NCBI RefSeq assembly: GCF_900104055.1
Contig: NZ_FNJQ01000003.1
Span: forward strand, 1 to 64,000
Length of the DNA stretch: 64,000 bases
Reading direction: 5' to 3'
Source of the DNA: Pseudoselenomonas ruminantium
GTDB taxonomy: Bacteria > Bacillota > Negativicutes > Selenomonadales > Selenomonadaceae
The notes under the pieces are model-generated. The model was not told the DNA's origin. It was given only the letters and a program-made list of their open reading frames with translations, and ran no database searches. This document shows, one piece after another, positions 18,569 through 26,791 of this stretch (position 1 is the stretch's first letter; every line of letters begins with the position of its first letter). Both the position numbers and the translations under genes were made by a program.

Positions 18569-19120
18569 TTACTTTGTTGGGGAAATGTTTTTCAGTTCCT
18601 GATGCAGCCATTCCAAGCGCTGTTTTTCGCGCAGGATGGCCTGCTGCAGGATGCAGCGGTGGCCGAAGTGTTTGTGCTGCTCGCTTTCATCGGCAAACAG
18701 CAGTTGCCAGCGGGCCTGCAGGTATTGGTATTTTTCCTCGTGCCGGGCGATTTCTTCCTGGAAGAGCCGGCCAACCAGCGGATGATCCGCAGAATCAATC
18801 AGATAGAGTTTCATGGTGAACTCATCCCGGGTGGGCACCGGGGGATTCAAGGGTTCAGCCATCCAGGCGGACAGAAGCTTCTGTCCGTCTTTTGTGATCT
18901 GGTAGAATTTCTTTTCGAGCTTCTTGCCCACCAGTTCCGTGCGCGAGGAAATCAAGCCGTCTTCTTCCATGCGCCGCAGCTCCGGGTAAATCTGGCTGTG
19001 GTTGGAGTACCAGAAGTCGCCGAGTTCTTCTTCAAACAGTTTCTTGATATCGTAGCCGGCCAGTTCCTCCCGGTTCAGCAGGCCCAGGATAATATATTTC
19101 AGGACATTTTTTTGTGCCAT
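18569..19120 (-). CDS. padR: PadR-family transcriptional regulator
   Basis: 183 aa. PF03551-type winged helix at residues 5-80 (YIILGLLNREELAGYDIKKL, then HSQIYPELRRMEEDGLI) and the Vir-C-like helical C-terminal domain of about 95 residues that PadR proteins use for dimerisation (EEIARHEEKYQYLQARW). The neighbourhood contains a phenolic acid decarboxylase gene, the classical PadR target, and the promoters there carry ATGTA-N6-TACAT repeats matching the known PadR operator pattern (ATGT-N8-ACAT). I infer that phenolic acids such as p-coumarate relieve repression. The gene is divergent from the esterase gene. Confidence 0.9.
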   Translation of the reverse strand: MAQKNVLKYIILGLLNREELAGYDIKKLFEEELGDFWYSNHSQIYPELRRMEEDGLISSRTELVGKKLEKKFYQITKDGQKLLSAWMAEPLNPPVPTRDEFTMKLYLIDSADHPLVGRLFQEEIARHEEKYQYLQARWQLLFADESEQHKHFGHRCILQQAILREKQRLEWLHQELKNISPTK

Positions 19121-19142
19121 ATTCGTTCACAGCTCCTCATTG

Positions 19143-19181
19143 TTTATCTGCCCTTAGTATAACATAGTTTCGACAGATAAA
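19143..19181. promoter_or_regulatory. 8-bp inverted repeat in the padR promoter region
   Basis: TTTATCTG (19143-19150) and CAGATAAA (19174-19181) bracket the likely minus-strand -10 region of padR (TATACT, about 19156-19161). It could be a second operator; it differs from the ATGTA-type sites. Confidence 0.4.
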
Positions 19182-19182
19182 C

Positions 19183-19251
19183 ATGTATCTTATTACACAA
19201 TATTGACAAGTAAGGGAAAAGAGTTTATGATGATTGTGTAAATAAATACAT
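19183..19251 (+). promoter_or_regulatory. PadR-controlled promoter of the esterase gene
   Basis: TTGACA (19203-19208), 17-bp spacer, TATGAT (19226-19231). It is flanked by two inverted repeats of the same type: ATGTA-N6-TACAC (19183-19198) upstream and GTGTA-N6-TACAT (19236-19251) downstream. The upstream one also lies towards padR, allowing autoregulation. Centre-to-centre distance is 53 bp. Confidence 0.8.
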
Positions 19252-19284
19252 GATATATAGTCTGAATAACGGGAGGTTATCTAG

Positions 19285-20394
19285 ATGAAAGCAGGTAAAT
19301 TACGGAAACTGTCTGTGGCGGCGTTGTTGTCTTTGGCTTTGGCAGTGCCGATGGCTGGCGGCAGCTGCGAGGCGGCGAAGACGCCGGAAAATCTTGTCCA
19401 TATGCAGCCGACTTATCGGGATGTAGTAGTGGCCAATGTGCAGAATGATAACGGTGCACCGCGTCAGCTGCGCATGAATGTCTTTGTGCCGCCAAAGGCA
19501 AAGGATGAAAAGGTTCCTGTGCTGGTGTTCGTCCATGGCGGTGGCTGGGCCAAGGGCACCTATGAAGGCGATGATGCCGTAAAGAAAGAGGCTGCTTCGG
19601 CTCAGATCGGCACAAATGCTCTGATGGCGCGGGATAATAACTCGGCCTATCGGATTTTCAAGGATGTGCTGAACCATGGCATTGCCTTTGTTTCCGTGGA
19701 TTACCGGCTGAACAGCGAAGCGGCTTTTCCGGCCCAGATTTATGATGTAAAGGCGGCGGTGCGCTTCGTCCGCGCCCATGCTGCTGAATACGGCCTGGAT
19801 GCAGACCGCATTGCCATTGCCGGCAGCTCGGCCGGCGCCCATCTGGCCACGGAACTTGCCGTGACCAGCGGCAACAAAGCGCTGGAAGGGGACGAAGGCG
19901 GTAATCTGGAGTACAGCAGCAGCGTCAAAGCCTGCGTGGATTATTATGGGCCGACGAACCTTTTGACCATGGCGCCGGAGATGAACCCGGCGCTGGAGGC
20001 CCCGGACAAGGCGGCAGAAACTCATGACTCCGTCCGGGCCAATGAGTCCATCCTGCTGGGCTTTACCGGCGAAGGGCAGGGCGTAGGTACCCTGCGCAAG
20101 ATCGATGAAGCCGGGGATACGACTTCGCCTTACTGGAGCATGGTGGAAATGGCCAAACTGGCCAGCCCCGTGTATCAGGTGACGAAAGATGCGCCACCTT
20201 TCTTTATCGCTCATGGCGGCCATGATTCCCTCGTGCCCATCCAGCAGAGCATCAGCCTGCAGAAGGCTTTGACCGATGCCGGCGTGGAAAATATCTTCAT
20301 GTGCAATTCCAAGGCACCCCATGGCTATCAGGGCGAAGATACCAACCAGGCCATGATGCGCTGGCTCTGCCGTCAGCTCGGCGTTAAATACTGA
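19285..20394 (+). CDS. Secreted alpha/beta-hydrolase, candidate hydroxycinnamate esterase
   Basis: 369 aa. Sec signal peptide (basic start, hydrophobic 11-25, SCEA/AK cleavage region). HGGGW oxyanion motif at residues 84-88, nucleophile elbow GSSAG with Ser182, acid Asp in GGHDSLVP and His in KAPHGYQ, the layout of hormone-sensitive-lipase/carboxylesterase proteins (BD-FAE-like). GGGAGG precedes ATG 19285. Its PadR-type operators and position next to padR and padC suggest that it releases hydroxycinnamic acids (for example from chlorogenate or feruloyl esters) in the periplasm or outside. The substrate is inferred from context only. Confidence 0.8.
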   Translation: MKAGKLRKLSVAALLSLALAVPMAGGSCEAAKTPENLVHMQPTYRDVVVANVQNDNGAPRQLRMNVFVPPKAKDEKVPVLVFVHGGGWAKGTYEGDDAVKKEAASAQIGTNALMARDNNSAYRIFKDVLNHGIAFVSVDYRLNSEAAFPAQIYDVKAAVRFVRAHAAEYGLDADRIAIAGSSAGAHLATELAVTSGNKALEGDEGGNLEYSSSVKACVDYYGPTNLLTMAPEMNPALEAPDKAAETHDSVRANESILLGFTGEGQGVGTLRKIDEAGDTTSPYWSMVEMAKLASPVYQVTKDAPPFFIAHGGHDSLVPIQQSISLQKALTDAGVENIFMCNSKAPHGYQGEDTNQAMMRWLCRQLGVKY

Positions 20395-20424
20395 CTCCCC
20401 ACATTTCCATAATATACACTTATG

Positions 20425-20470
20425 AAGCAACCGCTCGGCAAGGCTATCTGCTTATGCCGGGCGGTTGCTT
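20425..20470 (+). terminator. Long hairpin after the esterase gene
   Basis: AAGCAACCGC (20425-20434) / GCGGTTGCTT (20461-20470), extended inside by CGGCA/TGCCG, making about 16 bp. The T run is short (TTTC). It separates the esterase from the regulator gene, whose real start is probably downstream of it. Confidence 0.65.
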
Positions 20471-20551
20471 TCGTACAGGAGCGTTGGGACAGAAAATCTT
20501 GTGGATCTGTACGAATATTTACAAGGACAAAGACGAAAGGTGATACAGGTT

Positions 20552-21820
20552 ATGGAGGAAAAGAATATTGCTTTGGACTGGCTGGAACTGGCAGCCAGTA
20601 AGGGTATAAAGGCTTTGGGGCAGAAGCTGCAGAGTAAGTGCGGCAGGAAGCTGGTTATTACGGGCAGGCAGGGCATCGCCCATTATCCCGAAGCAGGCAT
20701 TATGGCGCCGTATGAAGTACAGGCGTTGCTGGCAAGTATGCCGGCATTTGAGGAAAATCAATATTATTATGCCAAAAATCAGCAGATGCTGGTGTTCAAG
20801 GTAATGCTGGCGGATATCCCGGACAGCATGCTGTTGCTCTTTTTCGCGCACGTGGGCACAGAGGATATCAGCAGGATCGGCAGTATTGTGGAGAGCAGCC
20901 AATTAGCTTTGAAGTGGTATCTGCGGGGGCATAAAGAGTTTGCCCGCCGGCTCCACGAACAGCGCACAGCCTTTTTTGAAGGTGTTTTCATTAAACATAA
21001 TATCGGTGTGGAGGAGCTGCTACGGGAACAGGGAATCGTCATTCATCGTGACAGTAAATATGCGGTCATGTTGATGGATATGGGGCAGGATCAGCCGCTG
21101 ATTCCACCGGCGGATTTTCGGGCGAAACTTTTGCAGTTCCGTCAGCGTCATCAAACGGAACTCATCTATCCCTTGGAATGGAATGGTCTGTATCTGGTGA
21201 TTCTCTCGGGGATTTACAGTCAACCGGAGTTCGACTTCCTGTCCGAAGCCAAGCGGCAGGAGATGTTTGCCTGCTGGCAGCAGCTTTTCTCCGAAGTTTA
21301 TAAGGCGGAGGTTTCCATTGGTGTGGGCACAAGCTATTCGCTGCCGGAATTGCATCGCAGTTATCATGAAGCTCGCATTGCCCTGATGTTTCGGCAGATA
21401 AAGGGGGAACAGGGCTTTGTGCAGGAGTTTGCCGATTTAGGCATCTTCCGGGAACTCTTTGGCTGTGAGCAGGAGCGGATTATCCGTTTCTGCCGCCAGA
21501 CTTTGGATAAATTATTGGCTTATGACCACAACTGTGATGCGGGCCTGCAGATAACCCTGCGGACCCTTATGGATACCAATTTCAACTACAAGCTGACGGC
21601 GGAAAAGCTCTTTGTCCATGTCAATACCGTGCGTTACCGCTGCGATAAGATTTCCCAGCTGCTGGGGATTGACCTCAATCACCCGGATACCCGCTTCAAT
21701 CTCTATGCGGCCTTGCGGGTGGGGGATGTGCTTAAAGCGCTGAACATGCTGCAGCCTGGTTATGTGGGAAGTATAGGAAATCATAAAAACAGCGGCACAG
21801 AGACGCAGACGCTGTTCTAA
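20552..21820 (+). CDS. CdaR/PucR-type transcriptional regulator
   Basis: 422 aa from ATG 20552, preceded by AAAGGTG; in-frame TTG 20465 and GTG 20501 would give longer forms, but the former lies in the terminator hairpin. The middle is a GGDEF-like CdaR domain (IGVGTSYSLPELHRSYHEAR). The C-terminal HTH_30 reads KLTAEKLFVHVNTVRYRCDK. The N-terminal 150 residues form a sensor. CdaR-like activators respond to small organic acids. It stands between two PadR-controlled genes, so it may sense a product of the pathway, but its own target is not visible. Confidence 0.8.
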   Translation: MEEKNIALDWLELAASKGIKALGQKLQSKCGRKLVITGRQGIAHYPEAGIMAPYEVQALLASMPAFEENQYYYAKNQQMLVFKVMLADIPDSMLLLFFAHVGTEDISRIGSIVESSQLALKWYLRGHKEFARRLHEQRTAFFEGVFIKHNIGVEELLREQGIVIHRDSKYAVMLMDMGQDQPLIPPADFRAKLLQFRQRHQTELIYPLEWNGLYLVILSGIYSQPEFDFLSEAKRQEMFACWQQLFSEVYKAEVSIGVGTSYSLPELHRSYHEARIALMFRQIKGEQGFVQEFADLGIFRELFGCEQERIIRFCRQTLDKLLAYDHNCDAGLQITLRTLMDTNFNYKLTAEKLFVHVNTVRYRCDKISQLLGIDLNHPDTRFNLYAALRVGDVLKALNMLQPGYVGSIGNHKNSGTETQTLF

Positions 21821-21834
21821 AAAATACAACAAGA

Positions 21835-21864
21835 AATGCACGACCTTGGGGCAGCTCGTGCATT
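21835..21864. terminator. Bidirectional-looking hairpin after the regulator gene
   Basis: AATGCACGA (21835-21843) / TCGTGCATT (21856-21864), 9 bp perfect, 12-base loop. T run weak on both strands. Confidence 0.5.
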
Positions 21865-21962
21865 CCTTTGCTGTGCATGATTATGGAAGGGAAGCCAGTA
21901 TGATAAATGTCAGACCGTTTCCTTGGCAGCATTCTTGCCTGCTTATTTTTTTAAAGAAAAAT

Positions 21963-22042
21963 ATGTATTTTATTACATGATATTGACAAGTCAAACGAAG
22001 AAGAGTATGATACATATATCAGATACATGTAAATAAATACAT
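21963..22042 (+). promoter_or_regulatory. PadR-controlled promoter of padC
   Basis: TTGACA (21983-21988), 17-bp spacer, TATGAT (22006-22011). Two perfect inverted repeats ATGTA-N6-TACAT flank it, at 21963-21978 and 22027-22042, centre-to-centre 64 bp. The -35 box is also the left half of the palindrome TTGACAAGTCAA. Confidence 0.85.
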
Positions 22043-22064
22043 AATTACAAGGAGGAAATCAACA

Positions 22065-22595
22065 ATGGAATTTAAGGAACTGGATGACTTTTTGGGCACG
22101 CATTTTATCTACACCTATGACAACGGTTGGGAATATGAATGGTACGCCAAGAATGACCATACGGTGGATTACCGCATTCATGGCGGTATGGTGGCTGGCC
22201 GTTGGGTGAAGGATCAAGAAGCCAATATCGTCAAGCTTACAGATGGCGTATTCAAGGTGACCTGGACAGAGCCTACGGGCACGGATGTGGCGTTGGATTT
22301 CATGCCGAACGAAAACATCATGCATGGCACGATTTTCTTCCCGAAATGGGTGCAGGATCATCCGTCCATCACGGTTTGCTTCCAGAATGAGCACATTGAC
22401 CTGATGGAAGAGTCTCGGGAAAAATACGAGACTTATCCGAAATATCTGGTACCCGAGTTTGCCAAGATTACCTATATGGGCAAGGCCGGACAGAACAATG
22501 AGGAAGTCATTGCCGAAGCTCCTTATGTGGGCATGACGGATGATATCCGGGCTGGCAAATACTTTGACGCTGACTATAAGCGCCTGAAAAAATAA
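22065..22595 (+). CDS. padC: Phenolic acid decarboxylase
   Basis: 176 aa, the typical length. The family core is fully recognisable: [34 protein letters not shown], and FPKWVQDHP with the Tyr/Glu pair and Arg expected in the lipocalin-like barrel. The enzyme converts p-coumaric, ferulic and caffeic acids to their 4-vinyl phenols plus CO2 without a cofactor, in the cytosol. AAGGAGG precedes ATG 22065. It has its own PadR-type promoter and a terminator 12 bp after the stop. Confidence 0.95.
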
Positions 22596-22606
22596 TAGGG
22601 AAAACT

Positions 22607-22642
22607 GCGGAAGCGTATTGGTAAAAATGCCTTCCGCTTTTT
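22607..22642 (+). terminator. Terminator after padC
   Basis: GCGGAAG (22607-22613) / CTTCCGC (22631-22637), followed by TTTTTC. Read-through would be needed for the next two genes to share the padC promoter; no other strong promoter is visible in the remaining 40 bp. Confidence 0.75.
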
Positions 22643-22681
22643 CTGCACGTAAGGTGCAACTATATTTAAGGGGGAGTTTTT

Positions 22682-23251
22682 ATGGGATGGAAAGAACGGC
22701 TAAGAAATGCGGCCCGGCTGCTCGGCAGACATCCGCTCATGGCGATAGCCGGATTGGTTCTGCTGGGTATCCTGGGCAATCTTGCCATGCAGCAGGCAGA
22801 AAGGTTTCCCAAGCTGGCCTGTTCGCCCTGTCATGTGATGGGGTCTTATGTGGAGGGCTATGACCATGGTGAATTGCTCGCAAACAAGCATAAGGATGCC
22901 CATGTGGATTGTATTGACTGCCATGAAAACGGAATTGAAGACAAGGTACAGGAAACCATCTGGTATGTGACGGATGATTTTGATGACCCGCCGGCCAAAC
23001 GTCATTTTGACAACAAGATGTGCACGAAATGCCATAGCGATATGGATGCCTTGGTTGCCAAGACCGATAAGGGCAATGGCGTCAATCCGCATAATTCCCA
23101 TCTGGAGGATCTGACCTGCTCGGATTGCCATAAGATGCACAAGCAGTCAAAGGCAGCCTGCCAGAACTGTCATGATTTTGAGTTCCTGCATAATCTGCCG
23201 CCGGAATGGGAAAAAGTACAGGACCCGCATGCAGGGGAGGGAGCATTATGA
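22682..23251 (+). CDS. NapC/NirT-type membrane-anchored multihaem cytochrome c
   Basis: 189 aa. One N-terminal membrane helix (about 18-36) and five CXXCH haem motifs: CSPCH (47-51), CIDCH, CTKCH, CSDCH and CQNCH. NapC/NrfH-type proteins usually have four, so one extra is present. They take electrons from menaquinol and hand them to a periplasmic reductase. The stop overlaps the start of the flavoprotein gene by 4 bp (ATGA), so this is its redox partner. GGGGGAG ribosome-binding site. Confidence 0.9.
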   Translation: MGWKERLRNAARLLGRHPLMAIAGLVLLGILGNLAMQQAERFPKLACSPCHVMGSYVEGYDHGELLANKHKDAHVDCIDCHENGIEDKVQETIWYVTDDFDDPPAKRHFDNKMCTKCHSDMDALVAKTDKGNGVNPHNSHLEDLTCSDCHKMHKQSKAACQNCHDFEFLHNLPPEWEKVQDPHAGEGAL

Positions 23252-24933
23252 AAGCAAGTGATTTGAGCCGCCGTAATTTTTTGAAGGGCGGTGCGCTGGC
23301 CCTGGCTGGTGCAGCTGTAGCGCCATTTATGGCTGGCTGCGGCAATGGCCGCAAACATGAGATGGATGATGAGGGCAATTTCAAGCAGGAAGATCCGCAG
23401 CCGGATTTCATGAAGCCGCCGGCACCCATTGCGGACAGTCAGATTGTCAGCACGGAAAAGGCGGATGTCGTCATCGTCGGGGCTGGCATGAGCGGCCTCT
23501 GTGCAGCCATTTCAGCGGCGGAGGAAGGCGGCAAGGTCATCGTGCTGGAAAAGACCAATACGGTGAATTTCCGGGGCTATGACTATGCAGCGGTCAATTC
23601 GCGGGTGCAGCAGCAGGTGGGCAATCATTTGGATCCCGTAGATGTTACCCGGGAAATCATGCGTTTTGGTGCCTACAAGCCCAATCAGAAAGTGGTTATG
23701 CAGTGGGTGAAGCACAGCGGCCATGTCAATGACTGGCTGTTGGATATGGCGCTGAAAAAGGGCTGCAAGGTGCAGCATATCTGGACTTATGATGAAATGG
23801 TGGCCGAAGGTGCCACCCTGCCTACCCGTCCCTCCATGACCTTTGTGCTGGAACCGACGCAGGAAGCCATCGAAAAAGCGCCCAAAGGCATGATTGGCGG
23901 CAAGCCGGTTATCGCCATGGCTTATACCCTGTTGTCCACGGCGCAGGATAAAGGCGTAGATCTGCGGTTTAAGCTGCCCGCAGTGCAGTTAGTCCGTGAG
24001 GATGACAACAAGGGCCGGGTGACCGCGGTTATCGCCCAGGATAAAGAGGGCAAATACCATAAGTTCATAGGGGAAAAGGGTATCATTCTCTGTGCCGGGG
24101 ACTACGGCCATGACAAGGAAATGCTCCATTATTACATTCCAAGTGCCGATACGGTCAAGATCAATCTTTATCCCAGTAAGGCCAATACCGGTGACGGACA
24201 TAAGATGGGCATGTGGGTAGGGGCTGCCATAGATGAAGGACCGCATGCGCCCATGTATTTTGACTTTGGCATGGTCAATGCGCCGGGACTGGCGGATTCG
24301 GTCATGCGCCAGCCCTGGCTATCCCTGAACAATTATGGGGAGCGCTTTGCCAATGAGGATGTGCCCTATCCCTTCATTGCCAATGGTGTGCGGCAGGAGC
24401 CGGATTACAGTAAGTGGAATATCTGGGATTCCAAGTGGCCGACCGAGGCTCCGGCCATGCATCAGACGGCCTGCAAGTCGCTCAAGAGCGTTTACCATGA
24501 CCCCAAGCGGCTGCAAAAGCTGATTGATGATGGCGTGGTCAAGTCTGCCAATTCACTAAAGGAACTGGCGCGGCAGATGAACCTGCCCTATGAAAAGGTC
24601 AAGGTGGAGGTGGAGCGCTACAATGAAATGGCGCGCAAGGGCTTTGACGATGATTTCTACAAGCGTAAGGAGTGCCTGACTACGATTGAAAAGCCACCCT
24701 TCTATGCGGCGCATATCTCCATTGCCCTGCTGGTAACCTTGGGCGGTTTGAAGATCAATGAAAACATGCAGGTGCTGGATAAGGAAAAGCATGTGATCCC
24801 CGGCCTTTATGCCGCAGGGAATAATTCCGGCAGTTTCTACGCCAATGACTACTGCATGACCATTATGGGCAACAGCCATGGCCGGGCCTATACCTTCGGG
24901 TATCTGGCGGGCAAGCAGGTTATGAAAGAGTAA
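23248..24933 (+). CDS. Tat-exported flavoprotein reductase (fumarate-reductase-like), candidate hydroxycinnamate reductase
   Basis: 561 aa from ATG 23248. N terminus SRRNFLKGG is a Tat motif and AGC at the end of the hydrophobic part is a possible lipobox, so it is an envelope lipoprotein. FAD-binding GAGMSGLCAAISAAEEG is near residue 80. The fold follows fumarate reductase/urocanate reductase flavoproteins, ending with GLYAAGNNSG and GNSHGRAYTFGYLAG, which replaces the usual GEVTGG-HG-NRLGGN text, so the substrate is not fumarate. With the coupled NapC-type cytochrome it should form a menaquinol-linked respiratory reductase. PadR/padC context suggests reduction of the hydroxycinnamate side-chain double bond. 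Confidence 0.85.
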   Translation: MKASDLSRRNFLKGGALALAGAAVAPFMAGCGNGRKHEMDDEGNFKQEDPQPDFMKPPAPIADSQIVSTEKADVVIVGAGMSGLCAAISAAEEGGKVIVLEKTNTVNFRGYDYAAVNSRVQQQVGNHLDPVDVTREIMRFGAYKPNQKVVMQWVKHSGHVNDWLLDMALKKGCKVQHIWTYDEMVAEGATLPTRPSMTFVLEPTQEAIEKAPKGMIGGKPVIAMAYTLLSTAQDKGVDLRFKLPAVQLVREDDNKGRVTAVIAQDKEGKYHKFIGEKGIILCAGDYGHDKEMLHYYIPSADTVKINLYPSKANTGDGHKMGMWVGAAIDEGPHAPMYFDFGMVNAPGLADSVMRQPWLSLNNYGERFANEDVPYPFIANGVRQEPDYSKWNIWDSKWPTEAPAMHQTACKSLKSVYHDPKRLQKLIDDGVVKSANSLKELARQMNLPYEKVKVEVERYNEMARKGFDDDFYKRKECLTTIEKPPFYAAHISIALLVTLGGLKINENMQVLDKEKHVIPGLYAAGNNSGSFYANDYCMTIMGNSHGRAYTFGYLAGKQVMKE

Positions 24934-25045
24934 GCGTTTATGGGGAAAAGATAAGACATAGACAGAAAAGATAGAGGATTTTACTCCATTCTGTCGAAGT
25001 CAATAGAGGAATATTTTTGTGAGATACTGACAGGAGGTTATGATC

Positions 25046-25447
25046 ATGTCCAATATTGAAAAAGTAAGCGAGTTTCTGGATCAGGCCAAGACCTTTTATT
25101 TCCTGACCACTGACGGCAATCAGCCCAAGGGGCGCCCCTTCGGCTTCCATATGCTGGTGGATGGCAAGCTTTATTTTGGCTGCGGCACGTTCAAGAATGT
25201 GTTCAAACAGCTGACCGCCAATCCCCAGGTGGAGGTGCTGGCGCTTAATGGCGATGAGTTCATGCGCTATGACGGCAGGGCCAAGGTGGTCAAGGATGAC
25301 AAACTGCTGGCCAAGGTGCGGGAGCTCATGCCGCAGATCATGGATATCTATGATAAGAATGGCTGGGAAATGGGGCTGTTCTATCTGGAAGATGGACATG
25401 TGGAAATCCGCGGCATGCTGGATCTGAAGGAAGAATTTGCCGTATAA
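25046..25447 (+). CDS. Pyridoxamine-5'-phosphate-oxidase-like FMN-binding protein
   Basis: 133 aa from ATG 25046 (AGGAGG, 9-bp spacing; ATG 25040 is also in frame). The split-barrel fold is indicated by TFYFLTTDGNQPKGRPFGFH and MLVDGKLYFGCGTFKNVFKQ. Small members of this family bind FMN or F420-like flavins and reduce small molecules or bind nitro compounds. It follows the flavoprotein gene by 112 bp and precedes a terminator. Possible accessory reductase of the phenolic block; inferred from position only. Confidence 0.8.
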   Translation: MSNIEKVSEFLDQAKTFYFLTTDGNQPKGRPFGFHMLVDGKLYFGCGTFKNVFKQLTANPQVEVLALNGDEFMRYDGRAKVVKDDKLLAKVRELMPQIMDIYDKNGWEMGLFYLEDGHVEIRGMLDLKEEFAV

Positions 25448-25460
25448 AGCAACGAGTGGT

Positions 25461-25495
25461 CTGACCGGTCAATTGACTGGTCAGGCTGTTTTTGT
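25461..25495 (+). terminator. Terminator after the FMN-binding protein gene
   Basis: CTGACCGGTCA pairs with TGACTGGTCAG (25461-25484, one G-T pair, tight turn), followed by GCTGTTTTTGTTTT. Confidence 0.75.
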
Positions 25496-25525
25496 TTTGG
25501 CAGGTTATAAAGTTTCATGTCATAA

Positions 25526-25583
25526 TTGACAGGTCAATAGTGTAGTGATATAGTAGGTATGTTTAATATGTAAATAATTACTC
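25526..25583 (+). promoter_or_regulatory. Promoter of the MFS gene with the same architecture as padC
   Basis: TTGACA (25526-25531), 17-bp spacer, TATAGT (25549-25554). The -35 box is the left half of TTGACAGGTCAA. Downstream ATGTAAATAATTAC (25568-25581) repeats the start of the downstream padC and esterase operators (ATGTAAATAA), but the right arm is imperfect. Confidence 0.65.
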
Positions 25584-25603
25584 ATATGGGAAGGATTGAC
25601 TCG

Positions 25604-26791
25604 ATGACTTGTCAAAAACTATGGACACGGAATTTTATCGCGCTGATTGCGGCGAATGGTTTTCTGTTTGCCAGCTTTCACTTTTTGCTGCCGACCATTA
25701 CGGTGTATGCGGCCAGCCTCGGGGCTACGGGAGCGCAGATTGGCCTGATTGGCGGCATTTTCGGTTATTCGGCGATTTTTATCCGCCTGTTTACAGATAC
25801 GGGAGTGAGGGCCTTCGGCAAGAAGAAATGCCTGTATGCGGGACTGCTGCTCTGTGTGGCTTCTGTGCTCGGTTATATGCTGTTTCCCAGCGCTGATGCC
25901 ATTATCTTTGCCCGGGTGATCCATGGTCTGGGCTTTGGGCTTTCCACCACCTTTGCGGCGGCTATTGCGGCGGATGTGATTCCGGCGGCGCGCCGGGGGG
26001 AGGGGATTGGCTACTTTGGCATGGGCAGTACCGTGGCCATGGCGCTGGCACCGGCCTTCGGCCTGTATCTGCTGGCAGAAAGTGCCATCTGGTTGTTCAC
26101 GGCTTCCATTGCCGTCAGCTTGCTGGCGCTGATGATGGCCTATGCCTGCAAGACCAAGGAGGCCGTGACGGAACTGCCCCCGACGCCGCCTCTGCGTTCC
26201 TCCATCCGCAACCGCCTCTGCGAGCACGGCACGGCGGGGCCGTCGCTTTTGACTATTCTCTTTGGTGCAGGCTATGGCAGTGTGAACACCTTTATCGCCA
26301 TGCTGGCAGCGGAGAAATCTGTGGAAAATGCGGGGCTGTTCTTCGTAATTGGCACCTTGTTCGTCTTTATTTCCCGCCCCTTTGGCGGACGGCTACTGGA
26401 TAGGTACGGCGCCTTTGCGGTAGTCCTGCCCGGTGCGGTTTCCTATCTGCTGGCTTTGGGCATCATGATCATGGCCGATTCCCTGACCGGCCTGCTTGTT
26501 GCTTCCGTATTCTATGGCCTGGGTGCCGGAGCGCTTTTGCCGGCACTTTTGACCTGGATGCTCAATATGGTGCGTTCTGACCGCCATAGTGCCGCGAGCG
26601 CCACCTTCTACAATATGCTGGATATCGGCACAAGCACCGGCCTGATCGTTCTGGGGACTTTGGCAGGCAGTGTGGGCTATACCCATATGTTCATGTATGT
26701 GATGGGCATCATGGCCCTGTTCCTGCTGCTGGCTGTTTTCCAATACTATCACCGCTCGGAACAGGTGCTGGCTGAAGCAGAAGAACTGTAA
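25604..26791 (+). CDS. Major facilitator superfamily transporter
   Basis: 395 aa from ATG 25604, preceded by AAGGA at 8 bp; ATG 25586 is in frame but poorly spaced. About twelve membrane helices in two halves with a cytoplasmic loop rich in Pro/Arg around residues 190-210. A motif-A-like GVRAFGKKKCLY follows helix 2 and RPFGGRLLDRYG its counterpart in the second half. The promoter resembles those of padC and the esterase gene, so uptake of phenolic acids or export of vinyl phenols is a reasonable guess. No close functional relative is recognised. Confidence 0.8.
   Translation: MTCQKLWTRNFIALIAANGFLFASFHFLLPTITVYAASLGATGAQIGLIGGIFGYSAIFIRLFTDTGVRAFGKKKCLYAGLLLCVASVLGYMLFPSADAIIFARVIHGLGFGLSTTFAAAIAADVIPAARRGEGIGYFGMGSTVAMALAPAFGLYLLAESAIWLFTASIAVSLLALMMAYACKTKEAVTELPPTPPLRSSIRNRLCEHGTAGPSLLTILFGAGYGSVNTFIAMLAAEKSVENAGLFFVIGTLFVFISRPFGGRLLDRYGAFAVVLPGAVSYLLALGIMIMADSLTGLLVASVFYGLGAGALLPALLTWMLNMVRSDRHSAASATFYNMLDIGTSTGLIVLGTLAGSVGYTHMFMYVMGIMALFLLLAVFQYYHRSEQVLAEAEEL

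What the first reader, a model, noticed from the sequence alone, without database searches (positions are those of the whole stretch)
18569..26791. PadR-centred hydroxycinnamate block joining esterase, decarboxylase and a respiratory reductase
padR, a secreted alpha/beta-hydrolase, a CdaR-like regulator, padC, a NapC-type cytochrome, a Tat/lipoprotein flavin reductase, an FMN protein and an MFS transporter are contiguous, and two or three of their promoters share PadR-type operators. PadC normally acts alone in detoxification. Here the cell seems able to free the acid outside, reduce it as an electron acceptor via menaquinol, or decarboxylate it inside. Gene identities are established family knowledge; the combined pathway is inference.
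Basis: partly seen in the sequence, partly recalled or inferred. Interest (0 to 1): 0.8.

Follow-up and report, generated by a model that had tools for sequence, protein, structure and literature searches.

The report
PadR-controlled vinylphenol-making and -reducing gene cluster
A rumen Selenomonas carries one co-regulated gene cluster that seems to free plant phenolic acids, strip off their acid group to make vinylphenols, and then reduce those vinylphenols outside the cytoplasm, a possible bacterial source of ethylphenols in animals.

Summary
PadR-type operators flank the padC promoter (two perfect) and the esterase promoter (two near-perfect); the MFS site is weak.

At the columns of FccA R402/H504/R544 the flavoprotein reads Y/V/Y. 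FccA, UrdA and two probable HcrB hydroxycinnamate reductases read R/H/R; ketosteroid dehydrogenase reads Y/G/Y, two VprA vinylphenol reductases Y/C/Y and L/C/Y. VprA is its best curated-family hit but far below cut-off: not a VprA orthologue. Menaquinone synthesis is not shown.

Seven of 189 family genomes carry close reductase copies. Five have it inside the padC cluster, in four gene orders; in one (L105) cytochrome-reductase is a separate unit with its own PadR operator pair. A sixth (split gene, no padC) has it beside a cinnamoyl esterase; the seventh is a remnant linked to neither.

Most likely: cytoplasmic PadC makes vinylphenol, which crosses the membrane and is reduced to ethylphenol by a cytochrome-linked Tat lipoprotein. 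Substrate and electron donor are inferred. In L. plantarum, vprA and pad are reported distant and separately regulated, so this is a new variant.

The parts
18569..19120 (-). padR, PadR-family regulator (PF03551 plus PF10400 C-terminal domain)
   Evidence: Pfam 63.4 and 45.6 bits, both over cut-off; relatives 53-97% identical beside padC or est in other Selenomonadaceae loci
19183..19251 (+). esterase promoter TTGACA-17-TATGAT with two PadR operators, each with one arm mismatch (ATGTATCTTATTACAC at 19183, GTGTAAATAAATACAT at 19236)
19285..20394 (+). BD-FAE-family esterase with GSSAG motif, probably secreted
   Evidence: PF20434 190 bits, cut-off 26.8; motif; signal peptide judged by eye; BD-FAE is a feruloyl and acetyl xylan esterase (PMC8165983, passages)
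20465..21820 (+). PucR/CdaR-type regulator; true start probably ATG at 20552
   Evidence: PF13556 76 bits; relatives also lie near B-type reductases
21963..22042 (+). padC promoter TTGACA-17-TATGAT flanked by two perfect PadR operators
   Evidence: two sites in 10 of 10 Selenomonas padC loci scanned (L104-L113)
22065..22595 (+). padC, phenolic acid decarboxylase, no signal peptide by eye
   Evidence: PF05870 250.9 bits
22607..22642 (+). hairpin GCGGAAG...CTTCCGC plus T-run between padC and the cytochrome gene, possible attenuator
   Evidence: seen by eye in window, L106 and L110; not in the list, whose loop limit it exceeds
22682..23251 (+). cytochrome c with five CXXCH motifs and a hydrophobic N-terminus, Cgr1/NrfH-like
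23248..24933 (+). Tat-exported lipoprotein FAD reductase, proposed vinylphenol reductase
   Evidence: PF00890 162 bits; TAT_signal PF10518 22.8 bits, cut-off 22.7; best NCBIfam VprA 210 bits, cut-off 600; active-site columns
25040..25447 (+). PNPOx-like FMN protein, role unknown
   Evidence: PF01243 50.9 bits
25526..25583 (+). MFS promoter TTGACA-17-TATAGT with a weak PadR-like site ATGTAAATAATTACTC
   Evidence: similar site before the MFS orthologue in L064
25586..26791 (+). MFS transporter, cargo unknown
   Evidence: PF07690 126.8 bits; 92% orthologue near est in L064

Best explanation
The cluster is a PadR-controlled, two-compartment decarboxylation-reduction route. A secreted BD-FAE-type esterase frees p-coumarate or ferulate from plant cell-wall esters. 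The acid enters the cell; PadR, released by phenolic acids, derepresses est, padC and, by readthrough or (in L105) its own operators, cytochrome-reductase. Cytoplasmic PadC makes 4-vinylphenol or 4-vinylguaiacol, consuming a proton. The neutral product crosses the membrane and the Tat-exported flavoprotein reduces its vinyl group to the ethylphenol, with electrons passed from the membrane by the five-haem cytochrome. Shown by sequence: gene families, export signal, operator placement, linkage, and loss of the carboxylate-binding residues. Inferred: substrates, direction, electron donor, and any energy gain.
For: Of 7 genomes with close (A-type) reductase copies, 5 have it in the padC cluster, in four gene orders; a sixth, G168, has it beside a cinnamoyl esterase whose 83-86% relatives lie next to padC in two other genomes. 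In L105 cyt-red is a separate unit with its own operator pair around -35/-10. In 15 chosen sequences (295,053 bases) all 24 sites with exact arms and at most 2 core mismatches lie before padC (19), est (2), cdaR (1) or cyt-red (2). 6 of 7 A-type genomes carry padC against 25 of 189 overall; B-type paralogues show no tie in the genus (5 of 8, p 0.58). Columns of FccA R402/H504/R544: R/H/R in FccA, UrdA and two probable HcrB; Y/V/Y in 4 of 4 A-type; Y/C/Y and L/C/Y in two VprA; Y/G/Y in KSTD. Best NCBIfam hit VprA. TatC and cytochrome c assembly genes present.
Against: VprA score is 210 bits against a cut-off of 600, no better than three LAB paralogues of unknown role (224-241 bits); two of these (L187, L190) also lack the R/H/R and have the first Tyr (Y/G/S). 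The tree does not join it firmly to VprA (65/41). One of two VprA lacks the first Tyr, and the second Tyr is also in B- and C-types. Co-occurrence is modest within the genus (p 0.023; related genomes; a fragment counted). G168 has cyt-red beside a cinnamoyl esterase but no padC and no PadR site found, which would also suit an acid or ester substrate; its gene is split. G153's remnant has no padC, est or padR on its 18.8-kb contig. In L104 cyt-red has no PadR site at the threshold used. With looser criteria a few sites lie away from these promoters (e.g. L107 5883). Many padC genomes lack the reductase; it is interrupted in HD4, split in G168, a remnant in G153 and deleted in G160. No quinone pathway shown.
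Confidence: 0.48

Rival explanations
1. The flavoprotein reduces the hydroxycinnamic acid itself as an electron acceptor, competing with PadC.
For: Same regulon as the acid-responsive PadR; in G168 the reductase lies beside a cinnamoyl esterase without padC; hydroxycinnamates are known electron acceptors (PMC13101492, abstract, by a different enzyme type acting on the CoA ester).
Against: Arg/His/Arg columns kept by FccA, UrdA and two probable HcrB are absent; not in their clade (HcrB+FccA+UrdA 99/97). Co-produced PadC would remove the substrate.
Confidence: 0.17
2. The flavoprotein reduces another plant-derived activated alkene released with the acids (hydroxycinnamoyl ester, hydroxycinnamaldehyde, monolignol or lignan); the padC link reflects shared induction only.
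For: An active site without carboxylate-binding residues fits any neutral phenolic alkene, and paralogues of unknown substrate share the loss; Cgr2 shows such systems can have unexpected neutral substrates (PMC5953540, passages); cinnamoyl esterase neighbour in G168.
Against: The activated alkene that the cluster itself is predicted to make is vinylphenol, and the link is to padC in four arrangements.
Confidence: 0.23
3. Two independent modules (padR-est-padC and PucR-cyt-red) lie side by side by chance; the reductase uses an unrelated acceptor.
For: PucR-type regulators also lie near B-type reductases without padC; the reductase is lost or broken in several strains.
Against: Own PadR operators before cyt-red in L105; four orders in the padC cluster plus a cinnamoyl-esterase neighbour in G168.
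Confidence: 0.12

Closest known systems
VprA vinylphenol reductase of lactobacilli (NF053717)
   Same: FAD_binding_2 flavoprotein lacking the Arg/His/Arg of carboxylate reductases; best curated hit
   Different: Two VprA here (L184, L185) have no export signal by eye and L184 has a divergent LysR gene; in L. plantarum vprA is reported distant from pad and separately regulated (PMC10295242, passages). Here: Tat lipoprotein, cytochrome partner, PadR operators, beside padC; 210 of 600 bits
PadR-PadC phenolic acid response of Bacillus and lactic acid bacteria
   Same: PadR, PadC and ATGT-N8-ACAT operators at the padC promoter (the operator rule itself is recalled)
   Different: Regulon extended to an esterase and an exported reductase; paired operators around -35/-10 in 10 of 10 Selenomonas loci scanned
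Cgr1-Cgr2 digoxin reductase of Eggerthella lenta
   Same: Multihaem cytochrome plus Tat-exported flavoprotein acting on a neutral activated alkene (PMC5953540, passages)
   Different: Cgr1 model 45 of 340 bits; Cgr2 needs [4Fe-4S] by that paper; no PadC link
HcrAB hydroxycinnamate reductase
   Same: Flavin reductase in hydroxycinnamate metabolism
   Different: Probable HcrB (L225, L226) read R/H/R at the three columns and are 815-830 aa with an extra N-terminal domain; the window protein does neither
BD-FAE feruloyl/acetyl xylan esterase
   Same: Pfam BD-FAE family with a GSSAG motif
   Different: Activity here untested; the original lies in a xylan utilisation locus (PMC8165983), this one in a PadR regulon

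Membership tests
PadC phenolic acid decarboxylase (PF05870) | near full-length match above curated cut-off | tested here: met
   250.9 bits, residues 6-162 of 176
PadR-regulated promoter | ATGT-N8-ACAT operator at the padC promoter | tested here: met
   21963 and 22027, conserved in relatives
PadR-regulated promoter | PadR binding and release by phenolic acid | not testable with these tools
   needs gel shift or expression data
VprA vinylphenol reductase | score over NF053717 cut-off (600 bits) | tested here: not met
   210.2 bits
VprA vinylphenol reductase | firm grouping with VprA in a tree | tested here: not met
   own clade with B and C types 98/99; VprA with other LAB paralogues 84/77; join of the two only 65/41
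VprA vinylphenol reductase | active site without carboxylate-reductase Arg/His/Arg | tested here: met
   Y/V/Y against Y/C/Y and L/C/Y; not specific
VprA vinylphenol reductase | reduces vinylphenols | not testable with these tools
   enzyme assay needed
HcrB/FccA/UrdA carboxylate reductases | Arg, His and Arg at FccA 402, 504 and 544 (numbers recalled) | tested here: not met
   Y/V/Y
Cgr1/Cgr2-type exported reductase pair | multihaem cytochrome gene next to a Tat flavoprotein gene | tested here: met
   five CXXCH; TAT_signal just over cut-off; overlapping genes
Cgr1/Cgr2-type exported reductase pair | Cgr1 equivalog score (NF051471, 340 bits) | tested here: not met
   45.1 bits
Menaquinol-dependent respiratory chain | menaquinone biosynthesis genes in the genome | tested here: inconclusive
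   menA none; menD-like 161 bits below cut-off 244; one PF02621 hit alone; other genes not searched
BD-FAE esterase | score over PF20434 cut-off | tested here: met
   190.1 against 26.8 bits

The most novel reading that the evidence does not exclude
Vinylphenol respiration: a rumen bacterium turns a toxic plant acid into its own electron acceptor. PadC makes vinylphenol inside, using up a proton; an exported PadR-controlled cytochrome-flavoprotein pair reduces it outside. Both steps would serve the membrane gradient or redox balance, and the product would be a source of animal 4-ethylphenols.
Probability: 0.4. Interest if true: 0.75.

Novelty: new variant of a known kind. Interest (0 to 1): 0.58.

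Why it matters
A review of lactobacilli says vinylphenol reductase has been characterised genetically and biochemically solely in L. plantarum, where it is not linked to the decarboxylase (PMC10295242, passages), and a 2019 paper knew of no earlier characterised bacterial enzyme (PMC7022639, passages). The enzyme is called rare, and the gut origin of 4-ethylphenol, described there as a neuromodulator, is still being worked out (PMC10602680, passages). A co-regulated, exported pathway in a common rumen genus would be a concrete candidate, testable with named strains that have, lack or have lost the reductase.

Tried and rejected
Structure prediction of the flavoprotein with 5 sequences gave mean pLDDT 44.6; no fold search was run on it. 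Search of plasmids for the 3.5-kb core: no match. Plasmid tblastn of the reductase: 435 records, all under 60% identity. MenD as evidence for menaquinone: rejected, its best hit lies among polysaccharide genes. B-type paralogue as an equivalent vinylphenol enzyme: set aside, Phe in place of the first Tyr and only a poor PadR-like site between cyt and red in L112 (7403, one arm and four overall mismatches), though it lies beside padR in L112 and L239. An inverted repeat TTTGTTTAT...ATAAACAAA before cyt in L104 was sought as a PucR-type operator; found in 3 of 239 loci, all copies of the same place in one genome, so nothing follows. The 1-mismatch PadR site at G000:C48 lies inside an open frame. 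Rows left out: alignment A1 used 21 sequences, the window's and 20 of the loci, without the interrupted, split or partial ones (L077, L080/L102, L089, L090, L091, L096) and without L097 and L103, further copies from genome G168; L074 is the window gene itself; L099 holds a run of N. In some searches the HcrB-type rows and two LAB rows were trimmed of their N-terminal parts. The search scored at most 7 candidates in many genomes, so weak copies may be missed. Literature: searches were search listings; none of the papers listed announced a PadR-linked exported vinylphenol reductase (titles and abstract starts seen; 20 listed of 33, 48 and 25), and the library lacks most subscription papers. A 2024 study of gut respiratory reductases was recalled but is not held, so overlap with it is unchecked.
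Full report
What is there. The window is G000:C44:1-64000 of a 3.2-Mb genome rated 99.98% complete. The closest named padC loci are Selenomonas ruminantium and relatives, so the organism belongs to that rumen group. PadC is a full phenolic acid decarboxylase without a signal peptide by eye. The esterase belongs to Pfam's BD-FAE family, named after a bifunctional feruloyl and acetyl xylan esterase (PMC8165983, passages). The cytochrome has a hydrophobic N-terminus (by eye) and five CXXCH motifs. The flavoprotein starts SRRNFLKGG...MAGC, a Tat signal and lipobox-like cysteine; close relatives have LAGC or LGGC.

Operators. The padC promoter (TTGACA-17-TATGAT) lies between two perfect ATGT-N8-ACAT sites; the esterase promoter has the same layout with one arm mismatch in each site; the MFS site is weak. 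Of the 80 padC loci fetched I scanned the padC upstream region in 24: 10 of 10 Selenomonas loci (L104-L113) had two sites (one of L105's with an arm mismatch); of the other 14, 13 had at least one and one (L140) none. In 15 sequences totalling 295,053 bases, 24 of 24 sites with exact arms and at most two core mismatches lie before padC (19), est (2), cdaR (1) or cyt-red (2). Those sequences were picked because they carry these loci, paralogues or a near-site, so the padC sites are expected; the informative points are the absence of strict sites elsewhere and the two before cyt-red in L105. Looser sites do occur elsewhere, for example L107 5883.

The reductase and padC. A protein search of 189 family genomes found close (A-type, 84-100%) copies in seven: the window, G157, G156, G148 (HD4), G151, G168 and G153. 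In the first five the gene lies in the padC cluster, in four orders: est-cdaR-padC-cyt-red (window, HD4); cdaR-padC-cyt-red with padR and est 5 kb on (G157); padC-est-cdaR-cyt-red (G156); cyt-red-padC-est (G151). In G151 (L105) the cyt-red unit has its own promoter with ATGTTTTTATTGACAT overlapping -35 and ATGTTAATTAATACAT after -10. The other two are damaged and differ. G168's gene is split, its genome has no padC match, and the gene directly upstream of cyt is a cinnamoyl esterase (192 bits to solved cinnamoyl and chlorogenic acid esterases); 83-86% relatives of that esterase lie directly beside padC in two other genomes, G158 (L119) and G144 (L053). No PadR site was found in G168's 3.3-kb contig. 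G153 keeps only a fused cyt-red remnant with no padC, est or padR on its 18.8-kb contig. padC is over cut-off in 25 of 189 genomes and in 6 of the 7 A-type genomes, fragments counted (hypergeometric 1.9e-5 in the family, 0.023 among 22 genomes of the genus; relatives are not independent). The B-type paralogue (53-61%) has no such tie in the genus: 5 of 8, p 0.58. Among the 80 named padC loci, a flavoprotein over 200 bits with the A1 profile is present in 5, all Selenomonas (four A-type, one B-type); one Lactobacillus locus has a 92-bit hit about 8 kb away, the rest have hits under 40 bits or none at E 1e-5; many loci are cut by contig ends.

What it acts on. Controls came from the same data. 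L225 (Lactiplantibacillus plantarum) has a divergent LysR gene, an FMN-reductase-like gene, an 830-aa two-domain reductase and a 202-aa gene. This matches the locus numbering hcrR to hcrC given in PMC10295242, but that review's text places hcrR downstream of hcrB and mentions further hcrB-like genes, so I call L225 and its relative L226 probable HcrB. L184 and L185 exceed the VprA cut-off (833 and 743 bits), and L184's locus has a divergent LysR gene as for VprR. At the columns of FccA R402/H504/R544 (numbering recalled), the alignment of 18 rows reads: R/H/R in FccA, UrdA and both HcrB-type rows; Y/V/Y in 4 of 4 A-type; F/V/Y in 3 of 3 B-type; G/V/Y in 2 of 2 C-type; Y/C/Y and L/C/Y in VprA; Y/G/Y in KSTD; Y/G/S in two LAB paralogues of unknown role. 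So the window protein has lost what this family uses to hold a carboxylate, which speaks against p-coumarate and for a neutral phenolic alkene; PadC's own product is the obvious one. The limits: the LAB paralogues have lost it too and score 224-236 bits with VprA, so the resemblance is not specific; and G168 shows the reductase can sit with an esterase without padC. The tree: HcrB, FccA and UrdA group (99/97); A, B and C types form their own clade (98/99) with a long A stem; the link to the VprA side is weak (65/41), and the program warned of long branches.

Electron source. TatC and cytochrome c assembly genes are present. Menaquinone synthesis is doubtful: no menA match, a menD-like gene below cut-off among polysaccharide genes, and one PF02621 gene next to a gene without family match and transport genes. 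The cytochrome may use an imported quinone or another donor; this stays open, as does energy conservation.

Wear and tear. HD4 has an in-frame stop at codon 357 of the reductase. G160 lost most of padC, cyt and red and the start of the FMN gene in what looks like one deletion but keeps padR, est and MFS. With G168 split and G153 a remnant, the reductase is an optional trait.

Verdict. Shown: gene families, export signal, operators, linkage, residue loss. Inferred: esterase substrate, vinylphenol as acceptor, electron path, MFS and FMN protein roles. The review seen states that pad and vprA in L. plantarum are distant, separately regulated and need not form one pathway (PMC10295242). Here the two steps appear to share a regulon and to sit either side of the membrane. 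That is a new variant of two known kinds (PadR-PadC and exported flavin reductases of the Cgr type), not a new kind of system. The library searches that could have shown it in print did not list it, but most subscription papers are absent.

Noticed in passing
L106 (S. ruminantium HD4), about 12246: The reductase orthologue has an in-frame stop at codon 357 while the neighbouring cluster genes match at near full length; it could be a real loss or an assembly error.
   Followed up: partly
L064 8700-9120 (G160): An apparent single deletion joins the first part of padC to the end of the FMN protein gene, removing cyt and red, with a similar TGGGAA stretch at the joint; padR, est and MFS remain.
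   Followed up: partly
L102 8-643; L119 10773-11396; L053 8032-8655: A cinnamoyl-esterase gene lies directly before the split cyt-red of G168 and directly beside padC in two other genomes, a second esterase type tied to this system.
   Followed up: partly
L112 7571-9280 and L239 5154-7078: B-type cytochrome-reductase genes lie beside padR relatives (85-87%) in two other genomes, truncated in ATCC 12561, suggesting repeated meeting of the two modules.
   Followed up: partly
L070 7206-11925 (G000:C50): The window genome's B-type paralogue (58%) sits with a cytochrome, an SLH-type porin-like gene and a PucR-like regulator (by eye and 33% match), with no padC in the 18 kb read; its best VprA piece (167 bits) scores higher than the window protein's (149).
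   Followed up: partly
window 22607-22642: Hairpin plus T-run between padC and cyt, also in L106 and L110, which could set a high padC to low reductase ratio.
   Followed up: no
L114, L116, L118 (Veillonella): padR-padC-esterase neighbourhoods (esterase 51-62%) without a flavoprotein hit in the loci read, so the esterase link looks older and wider than the reductase link.
   Followed up: no
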